This document shows, in pieces, positions 24,428 to 29,253 of a stretch of DNA of 64,000 nucleotides. This DNA comes from Peptoniphilaceae bacterium (GTDB lineage Bacteria > Bacillota > Clostridia > Tissierellales > Peptoniphilaceae), in NCBI GenBank assembly GCA_028726605.1, contig JAQYPV010000023.1, forward strand, positions 62,001-126,000, given 5' to 3'. The notes under the pieces are model-generated. The model was not told the DNA's origin, did not search any database, and saw nothing but the letters and a program-made list of their open reading frames with translations. Each line of letters begins with the position of its first letter. Position 1 is the first letter of the stretch. Made by a program: the position numbers and the translations under genes.

Positions 24428-24462
24428 TCATGGGAAATCTTCGATTAGCGATTTTCCCATGA
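24428..24462. repeat. Hairpin element TCATGGGAAA, copy 1
   Basis: TCATGGGAAATC pairs with GATTTTCCCATGA. A second copy lies at 24596-24630. Confidence 0.6.
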
Positions 24463-24595: not shown

Positions 24596-24630
24596 TCATG
24601 GGAGAACGTCGATTCTCGATTTTCCCATGA
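24596..24630. repeat. Hairpin element TCATGGGAAA, copy 2
   Basis: TCATGGGAGAA pairs with TTTTCCCATGA around a loop containing a small TCGATTCTCGA stem. Related to the copy at 24428. Confidence 0.6.
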
Positions 24631-24821: not shown

Positions 24822-24896
24822 GCCCTTCGAACCGACTCCCTCGTGACCCCTTCGAACCAACTCCCTCGTGGCCCCTTCGAACCAACTCCCTCGTGG
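24822..24896. repeat. 25-bp tandem repeat, three copies
   Basis: Unit CCCCTTCGAACCAACTCCCT plus CGTGG, starting at 24822, 24847 and 24872. Copies 2 and 3 are identical; copy 1 has three differences. It lies about 40 bases upstream of the queT promoter. Confidence 0.8.
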
Positions 24897-24934
24897 CCCT
24901 ACAAAAGTGACGATCATTCATTTCTCGTGCCGGT

Positions 24935-25742: not shown

Positions 25743-27089
25743 CTATGCCTTGCGCCGCACGACAAACGCGGGCGCGGAGTAGTACGGCCGCGCCCCGGAG
25801 ATGAGGCCGTGGCGGCCCACGCGCGTGTACGAGCCGGCAAAGGCTTCATCGTAGAGGAAGAGGCCGATGACGTGCCCGAGCCGCGTCTCTTCGAGGGCGC
25901 CGGTTTCGGGATTGAGTTCCACGAAGGGCGTGGGATCCACATCGACGTATTCCTGATAGATGTAGCGGTCCAGCGGCAGATCGCGGATAATCTGTGCCCA
26001 CTCGCGCGGTTCGTGTTCGCGCCCCAGGAGAATGCCCTGTGACGCATAGGAATTGTACGGTTTCAAGATGAACGCGTCTTTTTCGGCGATGACGCGCGCC
26101 TTGTCTTCTTCGGAGACGAGGTCTTTCGTCCACGGCACGTGGGCCGCGACGAACGCGTTCTCGGCATCGCTCAGAATGGCCTGCGTCCTGGGATCGTACA
26201 TCATCGAGAAGATGGTCTTGGCGTGCATGACCTGCGATCGGAACGACCCGAACGACAAAAAGGCTCGGTCGCGGTAGGCCTGTTCGAAAGGTTGCGCCGC
26301 GTCGGCGAGGGCCACGTAATCGGACGTCACGAGGCGGCGGTACACGAGGTCGATGGGAAGGCGTTCGGCCGTGTCCTCTTGCGGCGCCCAGAGGCGTCCG
26401 CCGGTATAAGTGAGGTCCCGGACGTCGGCGATGACGGCCGAAACGCCGGCGCGGCGAAACGCGTCGCAAAAGACCTCAAATTCCAGAGACGTGCCTTTCT
26501 CGAGCGCGTCCACGATGGCGACGCTCTGGCAATCCCGCCCGGTGAGGGCGCGGTAGCGCGTCAAAAAGCGCGAAACGAGCGTGTCGAAGAGGGAAAAGGG
26601 CTGAATGTCCCAATCCTCGGCCATCGCGCGGAACAGTTCGGTTTCGCTGAGCAACCCGCCCAAGACGCGATCTTCGTTCATGGCGGACGAGCCGTCGGTG
26701 TTGAGTTCGCAGAATTTGAAGTCCGTCCCGCCGTTGTAGAAAATGTCATAGCGCCCCACGGGCACGGGGATATCGTAGCCGGGGTCGATCAAGATGAGGT
26801 CTTCCGTTTTAGCGTCAAAGTGAAAGCCCGGGCGGTAGTCTGGATTTTTCACGTATTCGGCCGTGATCTTGCGCCCAATGCTCACCATCGTCGCAATGAT
26901 CTCTTCGAAGAGATGGACGGTCTCTTCGGGAAAGAAGATGCCCTGATAGGTCATGGGGATGACGATGCCGTGGTAGAGACGGCGCGTCTCTTCGCTCGTC
27001 TCGAGCATGTTTTGCGCGTCGGCGCCGAAGCGCCGGGGCTCGGCGAGCGCTCTTTGGATGTAGTCTTGTGTGAATTCAGGATAGAACAT
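25743..27089 (-). CDS. ATP-grasp ligase related to glutathionylspermidine synthase
   Basis: 448-residue protein resembling the C-N ligase (synthetase) domain of glutathionylspermidine synthase-like ATP-grasp enzymes. Visible features: GRYDIFYNGG, the ligand/metal-type FCELNTDGSSAMNEDR (ExNxD), a nucleotide-binding ILKPYNSYASQGILLG segment, and the EYVDVDPTPFVELNPE region. No amidase domain is present. The track ORF begins at 27101, but GAGGTG lies five bases before ATG 27089 (MFYPEF), which I use. It overlaps the upstream glutamate-cysteine-ligase-like gene by 14 bases, so the two are almost certainly coupled. The natural reading is a second peptide-bond-forming step on gamma-Glu-Cys or a similar product; the acceptor is unknown. 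Confidence 0.72.
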   Translation of the reverse strand: MFYPEFTQDYIQRALAEPRRFGADAQNMLETSEETRRLYHGIVIPMTYQGIFFPEETVHLFEEIIATMVSIGRKITAEYVKNPDYRPGFHFDAKTEDLILIDPGYDIPVPVGRYDIFYNGGTDFKFCELNTDGSSAMNEDRVLGGLLSETELFRAMAEDWDIQPFSLFDTLVSRFLTRYRALTGRDCQSVAIVDALEKGTSLEFEVFCDAFRRAGVSAVIADVRDLTYTGGRLWAPQEDTAERLPIDLVYRRLVTSDYVALADAAQPFEQAYRDRAFLSFGSFRSQVMHAKTIFSMMYDPRTQAILSDAENAFVAAHVPWTKDLVSEEDKARVIAEKDAFILKPYNSYASQGILLGREHEPREWAQIIRDLPLDRYIYQEYVDVDPTPFVELNPETGALEETRLGHVIGLFLYDEAFAGSYTRVGRHGLISGARPYYSAPAFVVRRKA

Positions 27090-28398
27090 GTCGCACCTCA
27101 ATGGAATTCCATGCTTCTTGCCAACCGACCCGATCGACCAGGCGGCCGAGTTCTGTGGCGGGCGTATCCAAGTTGTTCCACAGCGCTTCGAGCGGATCCA
27201 ACAAGGCCGCCTCGTCAGAGGATAGCGCCTCGCGCGCCATGCGGAGGAGGCCCAGACCCCAGTTCACGAAGTAATCCGAGTGGTAATAACCCTGTAGGCC
27301 GTGATCGCGTCCAGAGCACTTGCCGCGCTCCACCCACTGTGTCGTCATGGGCGTAAAGAGGGCGGAGAGTCTCTCGAGGTTGTCGCGGTTGTAGAAGAGG
27401 CCTTTGATGAGGGCTGCCGCGCCCATGCCGTATGTCGGCTTCACGGAATCCATGGCGCGGATTTCCAGTACCCCTTTCGCTCGGACGTCGGGAAAGACGA
27501 TGGACATCCCGTGACGGACGAGGGCTTCGGCTTCTTCGGGTGAGCGGGCGTCGTCCAAGACGTCAGCGAGCGTGCGGTCTCCCGTGCGCACGACGTCGCC
27601 GCCGCTTTCGTAGAAGATGGGCGGCACGCCGAGGACCCAATCGGCGTACTTCTCGACGGAGAAATCGTCGTCGAACACCGTGGACGGAAAGCCGCTGCGC
27701 GCGGGGTCGGTGTGGGTCCACACGTCTTGGCGAAAGTTGTGGTGCAAAAGTTGTTTCCCTTCGAAGTCGACGGCGGAGTCGAACAGGGTGTAGAGGATGG
27801 GCGAAAGTGCCACGAGCACGCGGTATTTCGTGATAAAATCGGCATCACTACCGACATCGATGGAGAGCTGAAAGGCACAACTCTGGCGCATCATGGTGCG
27901 GGAGAGTGCGCCTCGGGCGCCCATGTGCTGATCCATCAAGGCGTAGCGCGTCTTCGGGATGAGGGGAATGGCGTCCACGGGGTTTTGAGGGTCGAGGCCG
28001 AGCGTCACGAGCCGCAGGCCGCGGGCGTCGAGGACTTCGTAGACTTCGTCCACGGCGTGGCGATACGCGGCGAGGAGCGTCGTGACTTGAGTCGCCGGGG
28101 GCAACGAGAATTCGAGCTGTGCGCCCGGTTCCAAGGTGATGGCGTTCGTCGGCCCTTCCAGCCCGATGATGTGCCCGTCCGTTGCGGTGACCGTCCAGTC
28201 GGGATGCAAGGCGGAAAGACGCTCCATCACGCCTTCTACGCCGTCATCGCCGGGGTACATGACGCGGTGGCCTTCCGCATCGATGACCAGGTGTTCGATT
28301 TCGGGCCCCAACATCCAGCGGATGCGATCTTTGTATCCGGCGCGAATGCGATTGGTGATCAGGCGTCGCTTCTCTTCATGTGATTGAAACAAACTCAT
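27076..28398 (-). CDS. Glutamate-cysteine-ligase-like enzyme (GCS2 family)
   Basis: 440-residue carboxylate-amine ligase, similar to the plant/proteobacterial GCL and EgtA group (GCS2). Motifs: GPEIEHLVID near residue 30, ITLEPGAQLEFS (the family's LEPGGQxELS), MMRQSCAFQLSIDVGS, LSPILYTLFDSAVDFEGK, and VLEIRAMDS near the C-terminus. It would join the gamma-carboxylate of glutamate to cysteine or another amine using ATP. The track ORF is 147 codons too long; ATG 28398 follows GGAGGAATTT and gives MSLFQSHEEK. No GshAB-type fusion is present; the ATP-grasp partner is a separate overlapping gene. The substrate cannot be proven from sequence. Confidence 0.82.
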   Translation of the reverse strand: MSLFQSHEEKRRLITNRIRAGYKDRIRWMLGPEIEHLVIDAEGHRVMYPGDDGVEGVMERLSALHPDWTVTATDGHIIGLEGPTNAITLEPGAQLEFSLPPATQVTTLLAAYRHAVDEVYEVLDARGLRLVTLGLDPQNPVDAIPLIPKTRYALMDQHMGARGALSRTMMRQSCAFQLSIDVGSDADFITKYRVLVALSPILYTLFDSAVDFEGKQLLHHNFRQDVWTHTDPARSGFPSTVFDDDFSVEKYADWVLGVPPIFYESGGDVVRTGDRTLADVLDDARSPEEAEALVRHGMSIVFPDVRAKGVLEIRAMDSVKPTYGMGAAALIKGLFYNRDNLERLSALFTPMTTQWVERGKCSGRDHGLQGYYHSDYFVNWGLGLLRMAREALSSDEAALLDPLEALWNNLDTPATELGRLVDRVGWQEAWNSIEVRHVLS

Positions 28399-28431
28399 AA
28401 ATTCCTCCACGCCCTCGAAGGCGTCTGCGTG

Positions 28432-28476: not shown

Positions 28477-29253
28477 ATGCACGACCAAATTGTCATACGG
28501 TATCTCTACAATAGCGGATTTACGATCGAATATGGTAATGATTTTATCGTCATCGACTACGTCGAGGGCCCTCTGACCTTGCCCGTCGATCGTGAGATTT
28601 TGTTTATAGTTACCCATGCGCACTCGGATCATTACAATCCGGCCATTTTCTCGCTTCCGGGCGCTGAGCGGGCCCGCTATGTGCTGTCGACCGACATCGA
28701 AGCGCCCGAGGCGATTGAAGCGTCCCAGGCGTCGGGAACGATCCTCCGCCTGGCGTCCACGCGGGAAGAGGCGGCAGTGCGCAAGATCGTCTACGACCCG
28801 AAGCGCACGCGCCGCATCGCGCCCATGGACGCCTTTCACTGGGGCGACGTCGCCTTTCAGGCGTTTGGCTCAACGGATCAAGGCGTTTCCCTTCTGTTCA
28901 CCATTCGCGGAGTCAGCTTCTTTCACGCCGGAGATCTGAACGCTTGGGCGTGGCCCAACACGTCAAAAGCTGAACAGACCCGCGAAGAGTCCGACTACCG
29001 GCGCTGGCTGGATCGCATCTCGGCCTACCCCATCGACATTGGCTTCGGCGTCGTCGACCCCCGCCTCGGGGAAAATGCCATGATCGGCGGCGCGCTTTTT
29101 CTGGAAATGCTCAAGCCCCAGATCTTCATCCCCATGCACTTTCGCGAAGGCACCGACGCGCCGTTTCACTTTCGCAAGATCTACCAGCCCCGCACCGACA
29201 GCGTCATCAAAGTGCTGACCGAGCCCGGGGAGCGGGTCATCGTGCAGGGATGA
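28477..29253 (+). CDS. Metallo-beta-lactamase-fold hydrolase
   Basis: 258-residue MBL-fold protein. The zinc motif THAHSDHYN is intact; a second metal ligand lies in FFHAGDLNAW and a later His in FIPMHFREG. The short length and the DLNAWAW segment resemble the UlaG/YtnP-like or generic 'MBL fold metallo-hydrolase' group seen in Clostridia; the substrate is unknown. Start ATG 28477 follows GGAAAGGAGACAGG; the track start at 28384 lies inside the divergent gene. It is divergent from the GCL/ATP-grasp pair, which may imply a link in thiol or peptide metabolism, but that is only positional. Confidence 0.82.
   Translation: MHDQIVIRYLYNSGFTIEYGNDFIVIDYVEGPLTLPVDREILFIVTHAHSDHYNPAIFSLPGAERARYVLSTDIEAPEAIEASQASGTILRLASTREEAAVRKIVYDPKRTRRIAPMDAFHWGDVAFQAFGSTDQGVSLLFTIRGVSFFHAGDLNAWAWPNTSKAEQTREESDYRRWLDRISAYPIDIGFGVVDPRLGENAMIGGALFLEMLKPQIFIPMHFREGTDAPFHFRKIYQPRTDSVIKVLTEPGERVIVQG

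What the first reader, a model, noticed from the sequence alone, without database searches (positions are those of the whole stretch)
25743..28398. Two-gene gamma-glutamyl peptide pathway in an anaerobe
A GCS2-type glutamate-cysteine-ligase-like gene overlaps by 14 bases a gene for an ATP-grasp ligase resembling the synthetase half of glutathionylspermidine synthase, without its amidase. Firmicutes that make glutathione usually use fused GshAB, so this split, non-orthologous pair could make glutathione by another route or a different gamma-glutamyl thiol or polyamine conjugate.
Basis: partly seen in the sequence, partly recalled or inferred. Interest (0 to 1): 0.7.

Follow-up and report, generated by a model that had tools for sequence, protein, structure and literature searches.

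The report
Unrecognised two-gene glutathione-type pathway in anaerobes
Two overlapping genes in an anaerobic coccus encode a plant-like enzyme that joins glutamate to cysteine and an unnamed ligase with the fold of human glutathione synthetase; together they look like a previously unnoticed route to glutathione, or a very close relative of it, shared by many anaerobic Firmicutes.

Summary
Two minus-strand genes overlap by 14 bp, each with its own ribosome-binding site: a GCS2 ligase (27076-28398) and an ATP-grasp ligase (25743-27089). The first closely matches plant glutamate-cysteine ligase (TM 0.90, 2.2 A; 36 of 38 family-invariant residues identical in the Brassica enzyme). The second reaches no curated family cut-off; its best solved fold is human glutathione synthetase, ahead of GspS/YgiC, with most but not all ATP, Mg and gamma-Glu-Cys contacts kept. 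Both genes co-occur in 52 of 101 genomes (one has only the ATP-grasp, three only GCS2; p=7e-24), even where unlinked, and are one fused 886-codon frame in one relative. Canonical glutaredoxin is about 30-fold enriched in genomes with the pair (7/20 vs 3/280), and the classical fused GshF is absent from them. Spermidine synthase is missing from 46 of 53. Best reading: Glu + Cys, then glycine, giving glutathione through a non-orthologous second enzyme. Glycine as last substrate is inferred, not shown, and the window's own genome lacks the two glutathione-use markers tested (canonical glutaredoxin, peroxidase). No published description was found.

The parts
27076..28398 (-). Gene 1: plant-type glutamate-cysteine ligase (GCS2), 440 aa; predicted to make gamma-Glu-Cys
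   Evidence: 2gwc TM 0.90, rmsd 2.2 A; 36/38 family-invariant residues identical in Brassica juncea GCL
25743..27089 (-). Gene 2: ATP-grasp ligase of an unnamed family, glutathione-synthetase fold, 448 aa; predicted to ligate gamma-Glu-Cys to glycine (or another amine)
   Evidence: model pLDDT 93.8; top PDB match human glutathione synthetase
27076..27089 (-). 14-bp overlap of the end of gene 1 and the start of gene 2 (translational coupling likely)
28404..28408 (-). Shine-Dalgarno-like GGAGG, 5 nt before the ATG of gene 1
   Evidence: sequence
27096..27099 (-). Shine-Dalgarno-like GAGG, 6 nt before the ATG of gene 2; supports the ATG at 27089 rather than the TTG at 27101
   Evidence: sequence
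28477..29253 (+). Divergent neighbour: metallo-beta-lactamase-fold hydrolase; relatives lie beside the pair in 14 of 80 named loci, so it is not a constant part

Best explanation
The two genes are a two-step, ATP-driven pathway to glutathione or a molecule that glutaredoxins treat as glutathione. Step 1 (well supported by structure and residues, not assayed): the plant-type GCS2 enzyme phosphorylates the gamma-carboxylate of glutamate and joins it to the amino group of cysteine, giving gamma-Glu-Cys. Step 2 (inferred): the ATP-grasp enzyme phosphorylates the cysteine carboxylate of gamma-Glu-Cys and joins it to glycine. The second enzyme is a separate family, with the fold of eukaryotic glutathione synthetase but not recognisably orthologous to GshB, to the GshB half of GshF, or to eukaryotic GSS.
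For: Step 1: the AlphaFold model of gene 1 matches plant GCL 2gwc at TM 0.90, 2.2 A, E 1.7e-32; 36 of the 38 columns invariant in the family are identical in Brassica GCL. Pathway: GCS2 and ATP-grasp are both present in 52 of 101 genomes and both absent in 45, with 1 and 3 exceptions (Fisher 7e-24); 60 of 80 named loci have GCS2 directly upstream; 8 of 10 genomes where they are not adjacent carry GCS2 elsewhere, so the link is not mere synteny; 18 of 18 strong phylum-level hits outside the order have GCS2 directly upstream, and one of these (L170) is a single fused 886-codon frame. Step 2: top PDB fold is human GSS, E 2.9e-18; profile alignment to GSS runs over most of the length (E 5e-6) and pairs R113=R125, D115=D127, E128=E144, N130=N146, S135=S151, R252=R267, K291=K305, K343=K364, all invariant in 99 sequences; roles of R125, D127, E144, S151 and R267 from PMC2845819, those of N146 and the two lysines from general knowledge. 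Product: the strict glutaredoxin model TIGR02181 rings among the control genomes only in E. coli, Caulobacter and Synechococcus, and in Bacillota in 7/20 pair genomes vs 3/280 others (p 2e-7; family level 6 of 7 glutaredoxin families have the pair); in the order sample it occurs in 5 pair genomes and in all 3 GshF genomes but in none with neither. GshF is absent from all pair genomes sampled.
Against: Two GSS magnesium ligands (E368, E425) and two gamma-Glu contacts (E214, N216) have no clear counterpart, and the glycine-binding alanine-rich loop is not recognisable, so the last substrate cannot be read from sequence. By sequence profile the family is as close to YgiC/YjfC/GspS (E 8.5e-7) as to GSS. 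The Peptoniphilaceae sampled, including the window's genome, have no canonical glutaredoxin, and the window's genome has no glutathione peroxidase; glutathione peroxidase does not track the pair (17/53 vs 25/48). 13 of 20 pair genomes in the phylum sample lack canonical glutaredoxin. Relatedness of genomes was not corrected for except by counting families. No biochemistry or thiol analysis was available.
Confidence: 0.62

Rival explanations
1. Same two-step logic, but the second enzyme adds something other than glycine (for example alanine, beta-alanine, serine or ethanolamine), so the product is a glutathione analogue, a new low-molecular-weight thiol.
For: The glycine-binding loop of GSS is not conserved and the loop near 430-440 varies between subfamilies; GSS-type enzymes can change the last amino acid (homoglutathione synthetase; PMC5919673); the window's own family lacks canonical glutaredoxin.
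Against: Relatives with the same enzyme pair carry glutaredoxins with the standard glutathione-binding motifs CPYC, TVPQIF and GGxDD, which argues for glutathione itself in those species.
Confidence: 0.22
2. The ATP-grasp enzyme is a peptide-polyamine ligase like YgiC/YjfC or GspS and makes gamma-Glu-Cys-spermidine or a similar conjugate.
For: Pfam GSP_synth matches; profile similarity to YgiC/YjfC/Gss E 8.5e-7; structural similarity to YjfC and GspS.
Against: 46 of 53 ATP-grasp-bearing genomes, including the window's own and four same-genus genomes, have no spermidine synthase (polyamine import not excluded); best fold match is GSS, not GspS; no amidase half.
Confidence: 0.06
3. Gene 1 is an EgtA-type enzyme and the pair belongs to ergothioneine synthesis or another pathway in which gamma-Glu-Cys is only an intermediate.
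For: Significant but low EgtA score (TIGR03444 126.7 bits against a cut-off of 370.8).
Against: Far below the EgtA cut-off; no third gene is consistently linked to the pair (the best are in 14 of 80 loci), whereas ergothioneine needs EgtB and EgtD; a fused two-domain version exists. EgtB and EgtD were not searched for.
Confidence: 0.04
4. The two enzymes work on other substrates and make some other dipeptide or amide; cysteine is not involved.
For: The GCS2 superfamily includes proteins such as YbdK with other or weak activities (general knowledge); none of the substrates was tested.
Against: 36/38 invariant residues are shared with plant GCL; the pair tracks canonical glutaredoxin.
Confidence: 0.06

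Closest known systems
Plant-type glutamate-cysteine ligase (GCS2; Brassica juncea GCL, PDB 2gwc; TIGR01436)
   Same: Same fold along the whole length, 36/38 family-invariant residues, about 27% identity
   Different: Below the TIGR01436 equivalog cut-off (203 vs 463 bits); bacterial; coupled to a different kind of partner gene
Eukaryotic glutathione synthetase (human GSS 2hgs/8fbz)
   Same: Best structural match; keeps R125, D127, E144, N146, S151, R267, K305, K364 equivalents
   Different: About 14% identity, no match to the Pfam eukaryotic glutathione synthetase models, E368/E425/E214/N216 and the glycine loop not conserved
GspS / YgiC / YjfC (glutathionylspermidine synthetase, peptide-spermidine ligases)
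   Same: Related ATP-grasp; R-x-D, E-x-N-x-D, K-P and late R motifs shared
   Different: No amidase; most pair genomes have no spermidine synthase; structural match weaker than to GSS
GshF (fused GshAB of Firmicutes, TIGR01435)
   Same: Same overall job (Glu+Cys, then a second ATP-dependent ligation) and, in L170, the same fused layout
   Different: Both halves are from other families; GshF and the pair were not found in the same sampled genome
Cp1B (fungal E-64 ATP-grasp, PDB 9cjn)
   Same: Best sequence-profile hit in the PDB (E 1e-5); pseudodipeptide-forming ATP-grasp that couples a carboxylic acid to an amino acid (PMC12568646)
   Different: Acts on epoxysuccinate in a fungal natural-product pathway

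Membership tests
Plant-type glutamate-cysteine ligase | GCS2 fold and invariant residues of the family | tested here: met
Plant-type glutamate-cysteine ligase | NCBIfam equivalog score (TIGR01436, 463 bits) | tested here: not met
   203.4 bits
Plant-type glutamate-cysteine ligase | Glu + Cys + ATP activity | not testable with these tools
   needs an assay
EgtA (ergothioneine) | TIGR03444 cut-off | tested here: not met
   126.7 of 370.8 bits
Eukaryotic glutathione synthetase | Fold | tested here: met
   top PDB match 8fbz, E 2.9e-18, TM 0.62
Eukaryotic glutathione synthetase | Sequence family (Pfam eukaryotic glutathione synthetase models) | tested here: not met
   no such match
Eukaryotic glutathione synthetase | Catalytic and gamma-Glu-Cys residues R125, D127, E144, S151, R267 (late R450 by motif) | tested here: met
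   R450=R423 rests on the G-x-x-x-R motif and on the alignment to YgiC, not on the alignment to GSS
Eukaryotic glutathione synthetase | E214, N216, E368, E425 and alanine-rich glycine loop | tested here: not met
   no counterpart in the alignment; the alignment is uncertain in these stretches
Eukaryotic glutathione synthetase | gamma-Glu-Cys + Gly + ATP activity | not testable with these tools
   needs an assay
Glutathionylspermidine synthetase (GspS) | CHAP amidase domain fused to the synthetase | tested here: not met
   448 aa, no CHAP
Glutathionylspermidine synthetase (GspS) | Pfam GSP_synth gathering score | tested here: not met
   18.9 of 29.3 bits for the window protein, (other family members match better)
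Glutathionylspermidine synthetase (GspS) | Spermidine available from own synthesis (supporting, not strictly defining) | tested here: not met
   no spermidine synthase in the window's genome (88% complete) nor in 46 of 53 ATP-grasp-bearing genomes; import not excluded
GshF (GshAB) | TIGR01435 match | tested here: not met
   none in G000

The most novel reading that the evidence does not exclude
Anaerobic Firmicutes make an undescribed low-molecular-weight thiol, gamma-Glu-Cys-X with X not glycine, through this pair; in some lineages glutaredoxins and a glutaredoxin-thioredoxin reductase fusion have come to serve it.
Probability: 0.22. Interest if true: 0.8.

Novelty: new variant of a known kind. 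Interest (0 to 1): 0.62.

Why it matters
Obligately anaerobic Firmicutes, among them common human-associated cocci (Finegoldia, Peptoniphilus, Anaerococcus, Murdochiella), are usually treated as lacking glutathione unless they carry GshF. A widespread, unannotated second enzyme would mean that many of them make glutathione or a close analogue, would give a function to a large family of unnamed ATP-grasp proteins, and would add another non-orthologous solution to the second step of glutathione synthesis. It can be tested at once with two purified proteins and thiol mass spectrometry.

Tried and rejected
Sequence search of gene 2 alone against the PDB found nothing; the family profile and the structure model were needed. 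A conserved third pathway gene was sought: the MBL-fold hydrolase and the YbaK Cys-tRNA deacylase neighbours occur in 14 of 80 named loci each, so neither is constant. Glutathione peroxidase was tried as a marker of use and does not track the pair. Pfam glutaredoxin is nearly universal and uninformative; the stricter TIGR02181 model was informative. Ten literature searches found no description of the pair. The primary papers on GspS and plant GCL structures were not held, so residue roles in those two enzymes were not checked. The YbdK comparison failed to align and so is no control. The human GSS sequence used as a yardstick was written from memory and then verified as identical to PDB 2hgs.

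Full report
WHAT IS THERE. Two minus-strand genes overlap by 14 bp. Gene 1 (27076-28398, 440 aa) is a GCS2 protein; gene 2 (25743-27089, 448 aa) is an ATP-grasp protein. Both starts have a Shine-Dalgarno-like site, and the one before the ATG at 27089 favours the 14-bp overlap over a longer one.

GENE 1. NCBIfam's best model is plant glutamate-cysteine ligase, TIGR01436 (E 4e-60, below the equivalog cut-off); EgtA scores far below its cut-off. The significant PDB sequence hits are plant GCL only. The AlphaFold model (pLDDT 94.3) matches plant GCL 2gwc at TM 0.90 and 2.2 A. Of 38 columns invariant among 21 family members, 36 are identical in the Brassica enzyme and a 37th is E for D. Gamma-Glu-Cys synthesis is therefore the clear expectation; it is not assayed.

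GENE 2. It reaches no curated cut-off in Pfam or NCBIfam, although most family members match GSP_synth and CP_ATPgrasp_2. The model is confident (pLDDT 93.8). Its best PDB matches are human glutathione synthetase (8fbz, 2hgs), then 3n6x, plant glutathione and homoglutathione synthetases, Cp1B, YjfC, YgiC and GspS; TM-scores of these are all about 0.55-0.65, so the ranking is a modest preference. Profile alignment of 99 members covers most of human/plant GSS (E 5e-6, 86%) and of YgiC/YjfC/Gss (E 8.5e-7, 92%), so sequence alone does not choose between them. Equivalents of human R125, D127, E144, N146, S151, R267, K305 and K364 are invariant in all 99 sequences; R450 corresponds to R423 by motif. 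The roles of R125, D127, E144, S151, R267 and R450 are described in PMC2845819. The magnesium ligands E368 and E425, the gamma-Glu contacts E214 and N216, and the glycine loop are not recognisable. Shown: an ATP-grasp enzyme of the GSS/GspS fold class with a conserved core. Inferred: gamma-Glu-Cys as acceptor and glycine as nucleophile.

A PAIR, NOT A COINCIDENCE. Among 101 genomes 52 carry both, 45 neither, 1 only the ATP-grasp (a 76%-complete genome) and 3 only GCS2 (one a partial match); Fisher p = 7e-24 (relatedness of genomes not corrected). In 80 named loci GCS2 is directly upstream in 60. Of ten genomes in which it is not adjacent (Anaerococcus, Schnuerera, Anaerosalibacter and others), eight carry GCS2 elsewhere. 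In an even sample of 300 Bacillota, 20 genomes carry the ATP-grasp over most of its length, and all 18 of these outside the order have GCS2 directly upstream; in one of them, G355 (L170), the two are one uninterrupted 886-codon frame, a GshF-like layout built from other parts. No third gene is constant nearby.

WHAT THE PRODUCT IS. The strict glutaredoxin model TIGR02181 rings, among 14 control genomes, only in E. coli, Caulobacter and Synechococcus, which make glutathione (established knowledge). In the 300 Bacillota it rings in ten genomes, seven of which carry the pair (7/20 vs 3/280, p 2e-7; six of the seven glutaredoxin-bearing families have the pair, p 4e-6, taking about 140 families from the label numbering). 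In the order sample it separates cleanly (88 bits and above vs 66 and below): five pair genomes, all three GshF genomes, none with neither. These proteins carry CPYC-type, TVP and GGxDD-type motifs; in two pair genomes and in two genomes without the pair the glutaredoxin is fused to a thioredoxin-reductase-like domain. This favours glutathione or something that glutaredoxins accept. GshF does not co-occur with the pair in either sample. Spermidine synthase is absent from 46 of 53 ATP-grasp-bearing genomes, including this one, which weakens the polyamine reading, though import is possible.

WHAT SPEAKS AGAINST. The sampled members of the window's own family have no canonical glutaredoxin, and this genome has no glutathione peroxidase; peroxidase does not follow the pair. 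Three genomes have the glutaredoxin without GCS2 (one is an incomplete assembly). The glycine step therefore stays inferred, and use of the product in this organism is unknown.

VERDICT. The pair is best read as a non-orthologous, glutathione-type pathway that is widespread in anaerobic Firmicutes. No earlier description was found in the library searched; that library holds open-licence papers only, so prior description elsewhere is not excluded.

Noticed in passing
L170 (G355), minus strand: GCS2 and the ATP-grasp enzyme fused in one 886-codon frame, a GshF-like layout made of non-GshF parts.
   Followed up: partly
L196, L197, L198, L199: Glutaredoxin domain fused to a thioredoxin-reductase-like flavoprotein (395-404 aa) in four Bacillota genomes; two of them have the GCS2/ATP-grasp pair and two do not.
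   Followed up: partly
window 28477-29253 and relatives in 14 of 80 named loci: An MBL-fold hydrolase of unknown substrate recurs beside the pair, mostly divergently transcribed.
   Followed up: partly
L040:12207-12701, L038:7585-8103 and others (14 of 80 named loci): A YbaK/EbsC Cys-tRNA(Pro) deacylase gene recurs near GCS2 in the same orientation; a link to cysteine use is possible but untested.
   Followed up: no
window 24823-24899: Three near-identical copies of a 25-bp tandem unit in an intergenic stretch.
   Followed up: no
window 24428-24462 and 24596-24630: Two 86% identical, self-palindromic 35-nt elements (TCATGGGAAA...TTTCCCATGA) in the same intergenic stretch.
   Followed up: no
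L126 (genome G107): An ATP-grasp homologue in a Lachnospiraceae MAG with no GCS2 found anywhere in that genome.
   Followed up: no
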